A DNA stretch of 64,000 nt from Methylobacter tundripaludum (lineage in GTDB: Bacteria > Pseudomonadota > Gammaproteobacteria > Methylococcales > Methylomonadaceae), in NCBI RefSeq assembly GCF_002934365.1, contig NZ_PTIY01000003.1:62001-126000 (forward strand), given 5' to 3'. Of the stretch, positions 3,437 to 35,869 are shown piece by piece (the stretch's first letter is position 1; each line of letters opens with the position of its first letter). A program made the position numbers and the translations under genes. Below the pieces are notes generated by a model. That model was not told the origin of the DNA and ran no database searches. It saw only the letters and a list, made by a program, of their open reading frames with translations.

Positions 3437-5002
3437 TCACTCGTGAATTACCGCATTTCCTTTTTCCACCTTCTGTAAAAAAGGCGCAACAACCAGCGAA
3501 GCCGCGAACATAACGGCGATAACCTGGAACAGGTTATTAAAGGTCATCACTTCCGCTTCCCTCATCGCAAGCCCGGTGATTTGCTTTAACGCGGCCAGAT
3601 CGGGATCGGGTAAATTCATTTGCCCCATCGACTCGGTTAATCCTTCCAGTATTTGCTGCGCCTGGTAGCTGGTTGCGGTAACCGAGTCGCGCAACACGGC
3701 ATAATGCGCTTTGGTTAAATAAATCATTTGCGTATTGGCGACCGCGAGCCCGATCGCACCGCCCAAATTACGCATCAGGTTATAAAGCCCGCTGGCGTTT
3801 TTAACTTCTTCGACTGGCAACCGGCCTAAGGCCAGCGTGTTGATCGGCAGGAAGCACAGCATCAAGGCGCTGCCCCGGATAGCCTGCGGCCAGAAAAACT
3901 CCCAATAGCCGGATTCGACGGTTAAATTGCCATTCAACCACGAACCCAGCGCAAACAAGCCAAGTCCCAGGCACAGCATCCAGCGCAAATCCATTTTTTT
4001 CTCCAATGGCCCCGCGATAAACGCGGAGAGTAACTGGAATATGCCGACAACCATCAAATAGTGGCCGATTTGCAGACTGTTAAGGCCTTTAACGCTGGAC
4101 AGATAAATCGGCGTCAGATAAATGATCGTATAAAGCCCCACGCCCAGTACAAAACTGTAACCGCAGCCTATCGCAAAATTGATATTGCGGAATGCGTAAA
4201 GGTCGATGATCGGGTGAGGCGTTTTTAACTCCCACACCAGCATCCCGATGCCGCTAACGACCGCAACAATACTTAACGCGACAATCAGATGATCTTCAAA
4301 CCACTGCTCGCTTGCGCCTTCTTCGAGCACAAACTGCATGCTGCCCAAGAACACGGCAATCAGCGCTATGCCGACAAAATCGATTTTCTGCAGCAGCGAC
4401 CAGTCCGGCCGGTCAATATCGAGGTACTTCCACACCAGGACGCAAACGATGATGCCGGGGATGACGTTGATCAAAAACAGCAATTCCCAGTTGTAGGTTT
4501 CGGTAAGATAACCGCCCAGCACCGGGCCGACGGTCGGGGCCATCGTCACAATCAAGCCGAGCACGATGCTCATGGCCGGTTGCAACCGCGGGGGGAATAA
4601 TATGAAGATCACGGTAAAGGTCATCGGGATCATCGCGCCGCCGACAAAGCCCTGCAAACAGCGGAACGCGATCATCGACGGCAGGTTCCAGGCGAATGCG
4701 CAAAGCAGGCTGGCCAGCGTGAATCCGCCCGCCGAGATGACGAATAAATAGCGGGTCGAAAACACCCGGCCCAGCCAACCCGACAACGGAATAACGATGA
4801 CTTCGGCGATCAGGTAAGAAGTCTGCACCCAGGCGATTTCATCCTTGGTCGCGGACAGCCCGGCCTGGATTTTCTGCAAGGAACTGGCGACGATCTGGAT
4901 GTCCAGCACCGCCATGAACACGCCAATCGCCATGCTGAAAAAACCGATCCAATGACCCAGGGTCAATGGCGCTTCGGCATCCTGCTGCTCCGTCTTTACC
5001 AC
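3437..5002 (-). CDS. emrB: EmrB-type MFS drug/proton antiporter (DHA2 family)
   Basis: A 521-residue inner-membrane transporter with about 14 hydrophobic segments, the expected size for DHA2 exporters. MAVLDIQIVASSLQKIQ near residue 35 is the family motif D1, the GWLGRVFSTRYLF loop is motif A, and MAPTVGPVLGGYL is motif C for antiporters. It starts with GTG at 5002, four bases after the stop of emrA, so the two form one operon. With EmrA and a TolC-like protein it would form a tripartite pump expelling hydrophobic compounds. The tolC-like gene is across the divergent promoter, under the same probable operator. Confidence 0.88.
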   Translation of the reverse strand: MVKTEQQDAEAPLTLGHWIGFFSMAIGVFMAVLDIQIVASSLQKIQAGLSATKDEIAWVQTSYLIAEVIVIPLSGWLGRVFSTRYLFVISAGGFTLASLLCAFAWNLPSMIAFRCLQGFVGGAMIPMTFTVIFILFPPRLQPAMSIVLGLIVTMAPTVGPVLGGYLTETYNWELLFLINVIPGIIVCVLVWKYLDIDRPDWSLLQKIDFVGIALIAVFLGSMQFVLEEGASEQWFEDHLIVALSIVAVVSGIGMLVWELKTPHPIIDLYAFRNINFAIGCGYSFVLGVGLYTIIYLTPIYLSSVKGLNSLQIGHYLMVVGIFQLLSAFIAGPLEKKMDLRWMLCLGLGLFALGSWLNGNLTVESGYWEFFWPQAIRGSALMLCFLPINTLALGRLPVEEVKNASGLYNLMRNLGGAIGLAVANTQMIYLTKAHYAVLRDSVTATSYQAQQILEGLTESMGQMNLPDPDLAALKQITGLAMREAEVMTFNNLFQVIAVMFAASLVVAPFLQKVEKGNAVIHE

Positions 5003-20348: not shown

Positions 20349-20756
20349 TCACGCCTTGATTTTAAGTTTTGGTTGATGGTGTTCTGGCAATTCTCGTAAT
20401 TTTCGGCGTATGGGGTCTATTTTAAAGTCAACGGTGCATTGTCTTCTTAGTAAGTTTATCCGTCCATCGCCTTCAGTAATCCAGGCGGGTGGGGCTGATT
20501 GTTGATAATTATTGCCATTTTTCGAGGTACGCACGACCAAAGCGATTTCTGAAATATTACCCGTGGTAACTCGGTGGATAGGGTACGGCAATTGCTGTTC
20601 AAGCCAGTGTAGCCATTTGTACACCGAATCCGGCTCCGATTGGGTATCTGCAAAAATTGCGCAGTCTGGCATATCGATCTCGCCGTGTGCGGCCATTGGC
20701 GCTAATGTCGAACTTTGAACGCCAGCGCCCAGGCTTAATACGCGTATCGGATTCAT
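20349..20756 (-). CDS. PAPS-reductase-like (adenine nucleotide alpha hydrolase) protein, C-terminally truncated
   Basis: About 135 residues. The start MNPIRVLSLGAGVQSSTLA contains the PP-loop (SLGAGVQSS) of the PAPS reductase/adenine nucleotide alpha hydrolase fold. CAIFADTQSEPDSVYKWL and RRQCTVDFKIDPIRRKLREL follow, as in phage members of the family. Those are normally about twice this length; here the frame ends soon after RRKLREL, four bases before prtN, so the second half seems deleted. The ATG overlaps the previous stop (TGATG). Function in phages is not established; activity of the short form is doubtful. Confidence 0.65.
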   Translation of the reverse strand: MNPIRVLSLGAGVQSSTLAPMAAHGEIDMPDCAIFADTQSEPDSVYKWLHWLEQQLPYPIHRVTTGNISEIALVVRTSKNGNNYQQSAPPAWITEGDGRINLLRRQCTVDFKIDPIRRKLRELPEHHQPKLKIKA

Positions 20757-21217
20757 CAGTAGCTCACTGCAATCGGATATTCCGATATGCTGTTGCTGAA
20801 TCTGGATAGTTCTGGGCGTAGTTGTTGCGGTTCGCATTCATTACGCACGGGAACATGAACGCGTTTTGATTTTCCGGTGCCGGTGAATTTATGAGCGGGC
20901 CTAATACCAATGTGTATTTTCGAAATGGCGCTGCTGTCGAGGCGAGCCATTGGCTGTTTATATGTCCCAACGGGGGCGCGATCGGCTGCAACAAAGACCA
21001 TCGATTTGAGGTTATTAAGTCGTAGCCATTCCAGAACGGCCAATCTCGGGTAGATTAGCTTGCCTTTTGGCCCCGGCCTGGAGGGTTTTGGAAAGCCCCA
21101 TTTGTCACGAATGGTGACAAATCCGACTTTTGCCAGTGAGCAGCCTGCCATTTTGGCTATGTCCTCACGGGTAACTTCGGTTTCCGGGTCTATCGGTGCT
21201 GTAATTACTTTGCTCAT
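20756..21217 (-). CDS. Phage protein with AlpA/excisionase-like helix-turn-helix
   Basis: A 153-residue protein. Residues 14-70 (EVTREDIAKMAGCSLAKVGF through KLIYPRLAVLEWLRLNN) form a winged-helix HTH of the MerR/AlpA/excisionase type. The C-terminal half is basic and unassigned (KFTGTGKSKRVHVPVRNE). It overlaps the genes on both sides by four and one bases. Its place near attL allows a role in excision or control of early genes. Family call is by pattern only. Confidence 0.5.
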   Translation of the reverse strand: MSKVITAPIDPETEVTREDIAKMAGCSLAKVGFVTIRDKWGFPKPSRPGPKGKLIYPRLAVLEWLRLNNLKSMVFVAADRAPVGTYKQPMARLDSSAISKIHIGIRPAHKFTGTGKSKRVHVPVRNECEPQQLRPELSRFSNSISEYPIAVSY

Positions 21218-22848: not shown

Positions 22849-23688
22849 TTATGATTGATACTCCATATTGCCGATATAGATGCTGATACCATCAACAGTA
22901 ATGCTGCTTTGGATCTTGTCGCGGAATTGCTCGGCGATTTTTTCTTGATGTTGCGCCAGCTGAACGATGCGATATTTCAGAAACACTTCTTTTGTGTCTG
23001 GCATGGCACGAAGTTGGCAGTCGAAAACGACTTTTTCAAAGCCGTCGTGGGGGATGGTTTTGAAGAGAAACCCGGCAGGCGGTTGCTCTGCCCCGGCAGT
23101 GACTTCGATTGACTCCATTGCGGAGCGATTTGCGGCAAAGTTGCCGACTTCGGTTTCCGATGTGTTCGTTGCGGAAGTTTTTAGTTTGCGCAAGGTTCTG
23201 ATGGTGGATTTGAAATCTGCAATATTTTGATCGCTAGATCCGTAGTAAAAAGACACGTTATCTTGCCAATCTTCGGCAAAATCGATAAAGCTTTGCTGGT
23301 TCATCCGTTCGTCGTGAAGGCGGATTAACGCGGCATAGGCGGGTGTTCTATCCAGAGCTACGTTGGCTTTATGCTTGCCCCAGTTGGGCGCTTCGTGACT
23401 GCCCATATCGATAATGGCCGCCGCCGTCATTTTGTTCTGATCGATAAATACACCAGTATCCGAGGTGGCATTTCCGTCTATGTAGCCGACGAATTCGGAC
23501 AATACGGCGGTTCTGAATGTTCCGCGAAACTGATCAGGATTCGGCAACAGCCGTTCCAGATTTTCGACCGAGTAGTCTTTTGGAATAACGATAGCGGTTA
23601 TGGGTGGGTGTTGGCTTATTTCATGTTGCGCCGCTTTGGCCGCAGATAGACCTGCGATTGCTTCTATTGCTGATTTGTCCATTGACAT
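22849..23688 (-). CDS. DUF2303 family phage protein (YfdQ-like)
   Basis: A 279-residue protein with the DUF2303 pattern: IPKDYSVENLERLLPNPDQFRGTF near residue 36, AAIIDMGSHEAPNWGKHKA, FIDFAEDWQDNV, and a C-terminal FLKYRIVQLAQHQEKIAEQFRD. E. coli prophage CPS-53 YfdQ belongs to the same family. Role unknown; members usually sit in early operons beside recombination or small regulatory genes. It directly follows the 23,691-24,044 gene, two bases apart. Confidence 0.75.
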   Translation of the reverse strand: MSMDKSAIEAIAGLSAAKAAQHEISQHPPITAIVIPKDYSVENLERLLPNPDQFRGTFRTAVLSEFVGYIDGNATSDTGVFIDQNKMTAAAIIDMGSHEAPNWGKHKANVALDRTPAYAALIRLHDERMNQQSFIDFAEDWQDNVSFYYGSSDQNIADFKSTIRTLRKLKTSATNTSETEVGNFAANRSAMESIEVTAGAEQPPAGFLFKTIPHDGFEKVVFDCQLRAMPDTKEVFLKYRIVQLAQHQEKIAEQFRDKIQSSITVDGISIYIGNMEYQS

Positions 23689-23690
23689 TG

Positions 23691-24044
23691 TTAGCCGCCT
23701 ATTTTGGTTACGTTGCCGCGCTTTTCAGACTCTTTAAAAAGATCGTCTTGTGTTTGCGGGCTGATGGTTAAATAGCCGAGGTTGTCGGCGTACATTGGGG
23801 TTGAGGTGGTGTTTTCCTCACTGGTTTTTCCGTTTTTGGTCGGCCTGGAAAATTTCAGCGTATGTTTTATTTGCACGCTGCTGCTGTCGCCGATCCGATC
23901 AAGGTCGAGCGTGATGCTGACTTGGCCTTTTTTGCCTGTGGCGATTACGCCCATGGCTACTTGCTTTAGGGCTTCGTGGGTTTTTTGGGCAAATATCCCG
24001 GCGTCTAGTTCGCCGAGTGTTTCGTCTAAGGTTGGTTTTGCCAT
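23691..24044 (-). CDS. Phage hypothetical protein, 117 aa
   Basis: Start at 24044 (MAKPTLDETLGELDAGIF) is set by GGAGAG a few bases upstream; the open frame runs on to 24149 into the structured-RNA region without support. The protein has a helical N-terminus and a beta-rich core (VSITLDLDRIGDSSSVQIKH). It is paired with the DUF2303 gene. No firm family assignment, although proteins of this shape commonly precede DUF2303 genes. Confidence 0.65.
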   Translation of the reverse strand: MAKPTLDETLGELDAGIFAQKTHEALKQVAMGVIATGKKGQVSITLDLDRIGDSSSVQIKHTLKFSRPTKNGKTSEENTTSTPMYADNLGYLTISPQTQDDLFKESEKRGNVTKIGG

Positions 24045-24065: not shown

Positions 24066-24090
24066 AAAAAGGTGCGCATGGGGCGCATCC
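24066..24090 (-). terminator. Terminator-like hairpin at the 3' side of the structured-RNA region
   Basis: On the minus strand GG-A-TGCGC (24090-24083) pairs with GCGCACC (24077-24071) around CCCAT, followed by TTTTT (24070-24066). One bulged A. It lies 22 bases before the start of the 24,044 gene. It would end or attenuate the RNA coming from 24,640. Confidence 0.5.
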
Positions 24091-24640
24091 AGTGGTTTAA
24101 AGGGTTTAAAGCCGCGTCCGTGCGACTGATGTTGTTGGCGTTTCCGCATCTTTGCCCGGCTTGAGACGAGTTGGGCTGCTCGTATTTGTTAATGCTGTGC
24201 AGGCCGGGCGTTAATCCGGCTCGACGGACTGTTTAAATCGCAGCTTCCCGTCCGGTCAAGGATAGGTAAGACCAGCATCGGCCCCGTCTAGGCTTTTGGG
24301 ATATGATCCCCGTTCCCATGTGTTTCTACTTTCAACACCGCTGCACAATAGTGGGCACTGATGGATAACCGGCCATTGGCCGCCATTGGCCGTTCTGAAT
24401 TTAACCTTTTAAATCCAGTACCCACTATTGTTGCCTCTCCTTACTGTCCCAGGGAGAGGCGTCTGGTTGCACCGGTAACCACACCGGTTGATGCTTGTCT
24501 TTCCAGCATGTCAGTGCGCTGGTTTATTGACTGGTCCTGTTCGGGACGGCTACACTCTCGGTCTATCCGGTTTTGGAGTCCGGCAACTCATCTTTCTCGG
24601 CGATTTCTCGCTGTCGAAATTCGGTTAAGCGGTGGTCTCA
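24066..24640 (-). ncRNA. Candidate large structured non-coding RNA (about 575 nt)
   Basis: A gene-free stretch on the transcribed strand of the PL operon, dense in hairpins. Stems: 24154-24160/24203-24209 with nested 24166-24170/24179-24183; 24298-24302/24306-24310; 24346-24360/24416-24430 (15 pairs, one mismatch); 24433-24440/24453-24460 (8 perfect pairs); 24491-24495/24505-24509; 24534-24537/24544-24547; 24600-24603/24608-24611 with a GAAA loop when read on the minus strand. It is bracketed by terminator-like hairpins at both ends. Size, ornateness and phage setting recall the ROOL and GOLLD RNA classes; no match to either is claimed. Decayed coding sequence is the main alternative. Confidence 0.5.
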
Positions 24641-24662
24641 AAAAATGCCCTGTTGCCAGGGC
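24639..24662 (-). terminator. Intrinsic terminator after the first PL gene
   Basis: On the minus strand GCCCTG-GCAA-CAGGGC (24662-24647) followed by A and six T (24645-24640). A GNRA-capped stem plus U-tract is a canonical terminator. It sits 27 bases after the stop of the 24,690-24,935 gene and at the 5' edge of the structured-RNA region, so expression beyond it needs read-through, antitermination or another promoter. Confidence 0.75.
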
Positions 24663-24689: not shown

Positions 24690-24935
24690 TTATGTTGCAC
24701 TCGGGCGTGCTGCTTTTAATATCTCGTTTGCGTACTGCATGGCTTTCTCAAACCGCCTATTACAACGGGCGTAAGCGCGTTGTATGAGGTTTGATAAGCG
24801 CCAGCAAAATTCCTGTCCATCATCTTCGTGCTTTAGCTCTAACTGAATCAGTTTGAAATGCAACTTATTTGCCTGATGGAGTAGTGCAGATGATTGATCA
24901 AATGATTGTTGGTTTTTGTCTAATGTTGTGGTCAT
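24690..24935 (-). CDS. First gene of the leftward phage operon, unknown function
   Basis: An 81-residue helical protein (MTTTLDKNQQSFDQSSALLH, FKLIQLELKHEDDGQEF, IQRAYARCNRRFEKAMQYANE). Start 24935 follows AGGGGG. It is about 75 bases downstream of PL and just before a strong terminator, the position of lambda N or another early regulator. It has basic patches (RAYARCNRRFEK) but no clear arginine-rich N-like motif at the N-terminus. Role as antiterminator is a guess from position only. Confidence 0.6.
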   Translation of the reverse strand: MTTTLDKNQQSFDQSSALLHQANKLHFKLIQLELKHEDDGQEFCWRLSNLIQRAYARCNRRFEKAMQYANEILKAARPSAT

Positions 24936-26505: not shown

Positions 26506-26901
26506 TCACGTCCCTTTTGATGTTTTTGGTAAGGCGTCGTAAGATCCTTTTTTCTCTCTAATGATTTGCTGAGTGCGCGTGTCAACATGCGCTTTAAAAA
26601 TTGCCTTTTCTACATCTGGCAATTCCGATATATCAAGGCAATCCATGTCACTTGGACGGGGGCGCATTGGCCCTCTACCGGTCAGTAGCCATTCTACACA
26701 GCAGCCCATTTCTGAGGATATAACAATGGCTTGGTTCATAGTGGGCAAGCGATCACCGTTCCACCAGTAGGTTACTGCGGGACCTGTAACTCCTAGGCGT
26801 TTACCTACGTCTTCACGCCGATCCTGTGCCCATCCTTTTTCATTCATTAATCGCCTGAAGCGATGGGAGAATTCAATAAGTAGTGCTTCTTTGTCAGTCA
26901 T
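26506..26901 (-). CDS. Phage repressor, CI-like without peptidase domain
   Basis: About 131 residues. The N-terminal lambda-repressor-like HTH is clear: FSHRFRRLMNEKGW, then DVGKRLGVTGPAVTYWWNG and PTMNQAIVISSEMGCCVEWLLTG, typical of short phage repressors of the Cro/C1 type. There is no S24 LexA-like peptidase domain, so induction must differ from RecA-driven self-cleavage, for example by an antirepressor. The start at 26901 leaves the PR/operator region free; upstream ATGs would run into the operator. Divergent from the Cro-like gene. Confidence 0.8.
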   Translation of the reverse strand: MTDKEALLIEFSHRFRRLMNEKGWAQDRREDVGKRLGVTGPAVTYWWNGDRLPTMNQAIVISSEMGCCVEWLLTGRGPMRPRPSDMDCLDISELPDVEKAIFKAHVDTRTQQIIREKKGSYDALPKTSKGT

Positions 26902-26949
26902 GCTTACAGCATGACCGATACGCGAGTAACAATCAGTTTTTAAAATCAT

Positions 26950-26978
26950 TTGACCGCCAAGTAACAAACTGTTATTGT
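26950..26978 (+). promoter_or_regulatory. Rightward early promoter PR
   Basis: TTGACC (26950-26955), 17-base spacer, TATTGT (26973-26978), just before the Cro-like start at 26986, so the mRNA is expected to have a very short or no leader. The spacer carries the operator TAACAAACTGTTA. The design is the mirror image of PL. Confidence 0.78.
26962..26974. promoter_or_regulatory. Operator OR1
   Basis: TAACAA-A-CTGTTA, one mismatch from a perfect palindrome of the OL type, in the PR spacer. A weaker half-match (TAACAATCAGTTT) lies at 26927-26939 on the repressor side and could be a second right operator. Confidence 0.7.
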
Positions 26979-35634: not shown

Positions 35635-35816
35635 TACTGCCCCTTATTGGGCAGGCGGGTTTGGTCGCCCGTATGGTTCTGGCGCAGAAGCTTCGCGCCG
35701 TCAGGTTCGTGGCTTTTTTTATGCCCTCACAGTTATGGTGGGTGGTGTATTGGGAGGCTGCGAAGCCTGCCGGACCCAGAGCCCGGTCGACCAACCCGAT
35801 ACATCATCCACCACCC
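35635..35816 (+). ncRNA. Structured RNA region resembling Ash/Icd-C4 immunity leaders (candidate)
   Basis: The 300-bp gap between the Mor-like gene and radC holds consecutive hairpins: TGCCC/GGGCA near 35,638-35,653, GGCG/CGCC, and GGCGC/GCGCC near 35,680-35,700. A long arm follows: 35740-35747 with 35809-35816 and 35748-35754 with 35795-35801, enclosing AGGCT-GCGA-AGCCT (35755-35768), a GNRA-capped stem on the plus strand. A frame across it (AGGFGRPYGSGAEASRRQVR, then GFFYALTVMVGG) resembles peptides annotated as Ash or host cell division inhibitor Icd-like, which in P4 overlap C4/CI-type antisense RNA. The class assignment is tentative. Confidence 0.42.
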
Positions 35817-35869
35817 TAAGTTTGGTCGCTTCGGTTGGTGGTTTAAAGCTACTGCTCTGGAGTTACATC

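What the first reader, a model, noticed from the sequence alone, without database searches (positions are those of the whole stretch)
24066..24662. Candidate large ornate RNA in the leftward early operon
Seen: about 600 bases without a credible gene on the transcribed strand of an otherwise gene-packed phage operon, holding at least nine local hairpins, including a 15-pair long-range stem (24346-24360/24416-24430), an 8-pair stem (24433-24440/24453-24460) and two GNRA-capped stems that are GNRA only when read on the minus strand (24600-24611, 24647-24662). Terminator-like hairpins with U-tracts bound both ends. Known: ROOL and GOLLD RNAs are 500-800 nt, occur in phages and have no known function. 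Inference: this could be a member or a new class.
Basis: partly seen in the sequence, partly recalled or inferred. Interest (0 to 1): 0.8.

Follow-up and report, generated by a model that had tools for sequence, protein, structure and literature searches.

The report
New mobile structured RNA in prophage
A stretch of prophage DNA without a gene encodes a large folded RNA whose core also turns up in other prophages, in an integron-like cassette and beside sugar-storage genes of a distant group of bacteria, so it is a real RNA family absent from the RNA database that was searched, with a job still to be found.

Summary
The stretch is a structured RNA on the minus strand of a Methylobacter-type prophage, without an Rfam match, so ROOL or GOLLD membership is not supported. 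It is an insert: three relatives of the leader carry 35-37 nt where this phage has 456 nt and the M. tundripaludum SV96 prophage 431 nt. The core, 'module B' (24346-24197, minus), is an independent domain. It occurs alone in a Mu-like prophage and alone between two attC-like sites beside another prophage. A covariance model from three copies then found it in a distant class (probably Alphaproteobacteria): 28 of 75 genomes of one family; 29 of 76 of its order with a second model trained partly on those. Of 20 copies examined there, 13 lie directly 3' of treY and 4 before GlgE- or treS-type loci, on the same strand. In an alignment of 24 copies three helices pair in 384 of 384 cells, with two-sided changes at 9 of 16 pairs (0 of 500 shuffles). 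Two hairpin loops are nearly invariant between the classes. I read it as an Rfam-absent, horizontally mobile RNA family, here the core of a larger leader RNA, probably acting through a partner that binds the two loops. Expression and function are untested.

The parts
24690..24935 (-). Upstream gene of the leftward operon (81 aa, no PHROG or Pfam match at E <= 0.001)
24640..24662 (-). Terminator-like hairpin 1 with U tract (GCAA loop); a similar hairpin and U tract precede the insert or the short hairpin in L023, L081, L083 and L017 (by eye)
24184..24639 (-). Ornate insert, 456 nt; empty leaders have 35-37 nt here
24600..24611 (-). GNRA-capped hairpin of the variable 5' domain (no blastn match to this part in the SV96 copy)
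24433..24489 (-). Module D: AACCGGTGTG..TTACCGG element shared with the SV96 copy, and 8-pair hairpin with compensatory changes in L014 and L015
24345..24431 (-). Long stem A (arms 24431-24416 and 24360-24345) with capping domain; two two-sided changes against L015; L014 keeps a stem here with a different sequence
24197..24346 (-). Module B, the independent RNA domain: closing stem, 5' hairpin with loop GAAAGUAGA, inner helices, 3' hairpin with loop AUUAACGC
24110..24183 (-). Module C: putative H-type pseudoknot CGAG-CAGCCCAA-CUCG...GGGC, GAAA-capped hairpin and ACGGAC hairpin; module C is present in all five leaders compared, the last hairpin not clearly in L017
24066..24087 (-). Terminator-like hairpin with U tract before the next gene
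23691..24044 (-). Downstream gene, PHROG 204 family, followed by a DUF2303 gene (22849-23688)

Best explanation
The stretch is an RNA made as part of the leftward early transcript of a temperate phage (transcription itself is inferred from gene order). Shown by comparison: it is a mosaic leader into which about 456 nt of folded RNA has been set, and its core, module B, belongs to a separate RNA family absent from Rfam 15, found also in other prophages, between attC-like sites, and beside trehalose and alpha-glucan genes of a distant bacterial class. Inferred: module B folds on its own wherever it is placed, because its closing stem is rebuilt at each site. It works as a transcript-borne RNA, in place or after processing, that presents two nearly invariant hairpin loops (GAANGYAGA and AKURRCGN) either to each other or to a protein or RNA partner conserved across proteobacteria. 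In the phage the surrounding helices would insulate, stabilise or multimerise this core. Its spread among phages and into a cassette-like site looks like that of a cargo (moron) RNA.
For: Three copies of B (window, L016, L024) give 11 of 43 pairs changed on both sides and 96.1% of 128 cells paired, 0 of 500 shuffles as good on these two measures. The strand of the RNA pairs in 123 of 128 cells, its complement in 112, because 11 cells are G-U. The model from these three hit a genome outside the class at 42.8 bits, the two other listed non-own hits in those 299 genomes being 18.8 and 18.5 bits. In that genome's family 28 of 75 genomes match at 32.8-48.3 bits; with model R3, which was built on 20 of these copies, 29 of 76 genomes of its order. 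In 24 aligned copies three helices pair in 384 of 384 cells, with 9 of 16 pairs changed on both sides, 0 of 500 shuffles. Within the 20 distant copies alone 3 pairs change on both sides in 7 cells (0 of 500 shuffles for cells, 7 of 500 for pairs). Empty versus occupied leaders: 35, 35 and 37 nt against 431 and 456 nt; the upstream genes of L081 and of the SV96 contig encode proteins 94% identical. B stands alone in a Mu-like prophage, closed by a perfect 19-pair stem, and between attC-like sites. In the distant genus B follows treY on the same strand in 13 of 20 copies. No Rfam match to the element.
Against: No transcript has been seen; everything is comparative. The window's own type of large RNA is known from one other prophage (SV96) and, in reduced form without a recognisable B (no match of R1 in its genome, or of R3 in L015), from L015. 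The SV96 copy of B keeps only the closing stem and the two end hairpins. The distant copies were found with a model that contains the structure, so the three end helices are favoured by ascertainment, and they form one close clade, so many cells are few events; the inner helix (2 pairs, 6 cells) is freer of the first objection. Module C has little covariation. The invariant loops could be a tertiary contact inside the RNA rather than a binding site. The family is rare: nothing beyond the window's own copy was accepted among 369 genomes of the class, and of 142 genomes of the distant class only G744. Regular linkage to trehalose and alpha-glucan loci in the distant genus points to a cis role there, which a pure cargo reading does not explain.
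Confidence: 0.5

Rival explanations
1. A cis-acting leader: the folded RNA and module C regulate read-through or translation of the genes downstream, as an attenuator or antiterminator, and module B is the sensor domain.
For: It lies between operon genes beside terminator-like hairpins. In the three empty leaders the same place holds a hairpin whose arms include the U tract of hairpin 1. Module C stands in five leaders before at least four different genes (by eye; families). In the distant genus B is linked to treY or GlgE- and treS-type loci on the same strand.
Against: B also stands where no gene follows in a leader arrangement: between attC-like sites and 3' of treY with a convergent next gene in L104. 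The genes downstream differ between phages.
Confidence: 0.28
2. A miniature mobile element: module B spreads as DNA or RNA, for example as a relic of an intron or transposon, and its conserved fold serves its own movement.
For: Occupied and empty leaders; patchy distribution; flanking complementary arms, a perfect 19-pair inverted repeat in L016.
Against: The closing arms differ between the phage sites and covary; the fold shows RNA-type G-U pairs; 18 of 20 distant copies examined keep to one kind of locus. Neighbours were not searched systematically for recombinases; among the frames scanned only a phage integrase (L101) and a Mu-like transposase (L016) turned up.
Confidence: 0.12
3. A phage cage RNA of the ROOL or GOLLD type (member or close functional analogue).
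For: Size of about 450-600 nt, phage location, elaborate fold.
Against: No ROOL or GOLLD match in scans against all Rfam 15 families; no tRNA gene in the window; the conserved core is only about 110-200 nt and lives alone elsewhere.
Confidence: 0.04
4. A coding stretch or a chance fold.
For: Short open frames exist on both strands; one frame of B's 5' part reads similarly in the three copies compared.
Against: Compensatory changes; no phase bias and no frame open in all three copies.
Confidence: 0.02

Closest known systems
ROOL and GOLLD RNAs
   Same: Large, elaborate, prophage- and phage-encoded RNAs of unknown function (PMC12286853, passages read).
   Different: No covariance-model match; no tRNA gene in this window; a small autonomous core that also lives on chromosomes and between attC-like sites.
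sRNA-Xcc1 (RF02221)
   Same: A small RNA carried by integron cassettes, with evidence of horizontal transfer (PMC12444791, passages read); a copy lies in the same Mu-like prophage as one module B.
   Different: The RF02221 model does not match module B; different place in that prophage.
OLE RNA
   Same: About 600 nt (PMC9723947, start of abstract in a search listing), ornate and conserved (PMC12286853, passages read).
   Different: No match; found mainly in extremophilic bacteria (PMC12286853); different context.
Phage-borne antitoxin mimic RNA of phage PhiTE (pseudo-ToxI)
   Same: A phage non-coding RNA acting in trans against a host system (PMC3475682, abstract and outline read).
   Different: I did not test the window for such repeat arrays, and no toxin partner is known for this RNA; analogy only.

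Membership tests
ROOL (Rfam) | Covariance-model match | tested here: not met
   (no ROOL among matches at the gathering threshold or at E <= 10)
ROOL (Rfam) | Lies often near tRNA islands in phages and prophages | tested here: not met
   no tRNA gene in the 64-kb window; the feature is from PMC12286853
ROOL (Rfam) | Homo-oligomeric nanocage | not testable with these tools
   needs structure work
GOLLD (Rfam) | Covariance-model match including the universally conserved 3' region | tested here: not met
GOLLD (Rfam) | Increased expression during phage lysis of the host | not testable with these tools
   no transcript data; the feature is from PMC12286853
HEARO, group I and group II intron RNAs (names recalled; taken to be in the Rfam library) | Covariance-model match | tested here: not met
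   none of these families listed
Module B family (defined here) | Closing stem plus 5' hairpin with loop GAANGYAGA plus 3' hairpin with loop AKURRCGN | tested here: met
   24 of 24 aligned copies; the window copy is 24346-24197 minus. L015 and the divergent L133 copy, which were not in the alignment, do not show it in full
Integron cassette (for the L024 copy) | Bounded by attC-like sites in a shared array | tested here: inconclusive
   site 4011-4099 of L101 fits the recalled attC arms, site 3710-3812 has an imperfect R' box; no integron integrase on that contig

The most novel reading that the evidence does not exclude
Module B is a horizontally mobile RNA gene, a folded RNA with one conserved cellular partner, that is resident in trehalose and alpha-glucan loci of one bacterial genus and has been captured by phages and an integron-like array as cargo; in this prophage it has grown into a 456-nt composite RNA built round the captured core.
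Probability: 0.35. Interest if true: 0.8.

Novelty: new variant of a known kind. Interest (0 to 1): 0.62.

Why it matters
To my knowledge (recalled, not searched) few structured RNA families are known to cross between chromosomes of one bacterial class and phages and cassette-like arrays elsewhere. Two loops kept nearly unchanged across that distance give a concrete handle for finding the partner by pull-down, in a named methanotroph (M. tundripaludum SV96) and in a genus that carries it widely (29 of 76 genomes of the order searched, all in that genus). The composite phage RNA shows how a large ornate RNA can be assembled by setting an autonomous RNA domain in the place of a short leader hairpin, which bears on how the large phage RNAs of unknown function arise.

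Tried and rejected
blastn of the 661-nt region against 50,697 phage and 72,556 plasmid records found nothing; nor did module B of L024 or a distant copy, L104. Rejected as chance: four blastn matches with a single short match and no further collinear similarity, L018-L021 (they look coding by eye, which was not tested); pattern matches L027-L031 and L045-L050, dropped after reading the sequence round the pattern; R1 matches of 14.3-19.6 bits in 7 of 237 family genomes and of 15.3 and 16.2 bits in 2 of 369 class genomes (sequences seen, frames not tested); R1 matches of 18.8 and 18.5 bits in 2 of 299 phylum genomes (only the model alignments were read); a second R1 match of 11.6 bits in the window's own genome; R3 match in G1001, 49 nt at 30.8 bits and R3 matches of 15.0-24.8 bits in six loci rejected before, L030 the best. 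L009 and L010 (blastn, E about 0.003) were not examined. Model R2 for module C reached E <= 0.1 in 149 of 237 genomes, with a capped match list, so its E-values do not discriminate: only G000, G019 and G013 (74-87 bits) were accepted; of the rest I read four sequences (L054-L057) and dropped the others on score (30.2 bits or less); the best of them, L054, lies inside a 198-aa frame. Module C pairs are well kept but covariation is weak (59 of 500 shuffles as good for two-sided pairs, four sequences: 122 of 500), so its pseudoknot is a proposal; so is the ACGCAC/GUGCGU pairing in the distant copies, which is 99.2% kept but never changes on both sides. Eight more distant relatives of the SV96-type upstream gene (L085-L092, six genomes) are not followed by this leader as far as read by eye (L088 ends after about 125 bases). 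A small conserved peptide in the 5' part of B was considered and rejected. Set aside without a test of their own: retron, IS110 bridge RNA, riboswitch.

Literature: the listings of eight searches of the open-licence library showed no paper on this RNA; the listed papers were not read, apart from PMC12286853 (passages), PMC12444791 (passages) and PMC3475682 (abstract and outline).

Full report
Setting. Loci of its relatives carry names: G019, of the same genus, has the contig length and coordinates of Methylobacter tundripaludum SV96, and G191 those of a Methylovulum MAG, so I call the host Methylobacter-type. An IMG/VR virus contig of 40.5 kb holds the identical region (L022). The minus-strand genes run from a repressor-like gene (26506-26967) past an 81-aa gene (24690-24935) to a PHROG 204 gene (23691-24044) and a DUF2303 gene.

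The observation. The minus strand folds better than shuffles (z = -3.69), but so does the plus strand (z = -3.16), so energy alone settled nothing. Comparison with relatives did.

First relatives. blastn over 237 genomes of the family gave 11 genomes with a match at E <= 0.01. Counting the window's own genome I accept five: G000, G019 (SV96), G010, G013 and G191. Four have one short match and nothing collinear (L018-L021) and two (L009, L010) were not examined. Patterns in viral contigs added L024 and L032, and a protein search added L083. No phage or plasmid record matched.

The stretch is an insert in a short leader. In L081 (the same contig as L032), L083 and L017 the leader has a terminator-like hairpin, then 35, 35 and 37 nt, which form a hairpin together with the U tract in the predicted fold, then module C. 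In the window the same gap is 456 nt and in L023 (the SV96 prophage, also held as L014) 431 nt. The proteins of the upstream genes of L081 and the SV96 contig are 94% identical; the gene downstream in L023 matches the recombination-associated PHROG 724, and the L081 one starts with similar DNA (25 of 27 bases). This is a clean pair of empty and occupied sites. Module C is well paired in five leaders, 91.3% of 80 cells, but with little covariation.

Architecture of the insert. From 5' to 3': a variable domain; module D with an 8-pair hairpin that is rebuilt by compensatory changes in L014 and L015; stem A, 16 of 16 pairs in both the window and L015 with two two-sided changes, and replaced in L014 by another stem, 13 of 14 pairs; then module B. 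L015, about 1.6 kb from exonuclease VIII- and RecT-type genes on the same strand, has stem A and a very short junction in place of B.

Module B stands alone. It is closed by a perfect 19-pair stem in a Mu-like prophage (L016: transposase, transposition protein, HU-like protein, anti-repressor, terminase). It lies alone in L024/L101, beside a prophage with a tyrosine integrase, between two attC-like sites whose presumed crossover points are 301 bases apart, with no frame of 50 aa or more over it. The second site has an imperfect box and no integron integrase lies on that contig, so 'integron cassette' is likely, not proven. The attC consensus used is recalled. The host of L024 is not known.

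Covariation in the three full copies. 11 of 43 pairs change on both sides and 96.1% of 128 cells pair, 0 of 500 shuffles as good; sliding the partners by one column drops pairing to about 45%. On the opposite strand 112 instead of 123 cells would pair, because 11 are G-U, which favours a minus-strand RNA. There is no codon-phase bias and no common open frame.

Reach of the family. With model R1 I accept only G000, G019 and G191 among 237 family genomes (10 listed at E <= 0.1) and only the window's genome among 369 drawn from the class (3 listed). Among 299 drawn from the phylum it hit G744 at 42.8 bits; the other two non-own hits listed have 18.8 and 18.5 bits. In its family 28 of 75 genomes match, all in one genus. 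With model R3, which was trained on 20 of these copies, 29 of 76 genomes of its order match, again one genus; the 29th, G910, is a divergent copy with a degraded 5' hairpin at a site where I saw no treY (by eye). Of 142 genomes drawn from that class two matched and only G744 was accepted. Searched sets overlap, and searches of over 40 genomes used stricter filters that lose weak matches.

Alignment across classes. Twenty distant copies (of 28 found; loci were given for 20) and four others (window, L016, L024, L023) were aligned by MAFFT. Closing stem, 5' hairpin and 3' hairpin pair in 384 of 384 cells; 9 of 16 pairs change on both sides, 0 of 500 shuffles. The copies were found by a structural model, which favours these helices, and the distant ones form one close clade. 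Within the 20 distant copies an inner helix has 2 pairs with 6 two-sided cells and the 3' hairpin 1 pair with 1 cell (0 of 500 shuffles for cells, 7 of 500 for pairs); the inner helix was not aligned to R1's inner helix in the match I read. Loop consensus GAANGYAGA and AKURRCGN (read off), with much of the rest variable between the two groups, is what one expects of a scaffold that presents two loops. Eight distant loci scanned give one sub-threshold Rfam match at E <= 1, outside the RNA (L111 2412-2486).

Context in the distant genus. In 13 of 20 copies the frame directly upstream, 11-62 nt away and on the same strand, is treY (the frames are fragments cut by the locus end, and score 389.7-464.1 bits against the whole-protein cut-off of 498.65). 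L117 has a 4-alpha-glucanotransferase frame about 250 nt upstream on the same strand. L112, L116 and L119 lie before a frame that reaches a GlgE N/S domain, and L110/L130 before a cluster with treS and glgB (the frame next to the RNA has no NCBIfam match). L115 and L126 gave no match. So 18 of 20 are tied to trehalose or alpha-glucan genes. In L104 the next gene is convergent, which speaks against a simple leader role there.

Mechanism. Shown by comparison: structure, independence of module B, insertion into a leader, presence in two classes. Inferred: transcription; that B acts as a transcript-borne RNA through its two loops, with a partner conserved in both classes, or through a loop-loop contact; that in phages it is cargo. 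The cis-leader reading remains the strongest rival and could hold for the chromosomal copies while the phage copies do something else. ROOL/GOLLD membership fails on the model test and on the tRNA context.

Novelty. The family is absent from Rfam 15, and the listings of eight literature searches of an open-licence library showed nothing on it; papers outside that library were not searched. It is a new structured RNA family, hence a new variant of a known kind.

Noticed in passing
window 35731-35818 (+): C4 antisense RNA (RF01695, 60.7 bits), as in P1/P7-type phages (recalled); another C4 lies in the SV96 locus L014 1858-1940 (-).
   Followed up: no
L016 9428-9509 (+): sRNA-Xcc1 (RF02221) in the same Mu-like Methylovulum prophage as a stand-alone module B, just upstream of an anti-repressor gene.
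   Followed up: partly
window 24110-24183 (-), L023, L017, L081, L083: Module C, a putative pseudoknot plus hairpins, recurs between different gene pairs in five phage leaders: a recurrent intergenic module of its own.
   Followed up: partly
L101 3710-4614: A prophage with a tyrosine integrase borders an array with attC-like sites; the phage may have integrated at or beside the array.
   Followed up: no
L133 3517-3638 (G910): A divergent distant copy of module B with a degraded 5' hairpin; by eye its downstream flank resembles that of L125.
   Followed up: partly
window 20349-20837 (-): Phosphoadenosine phosphosulfate reductase-like gene (PHROG 424) further along the leftward genes.
   Followed up: no
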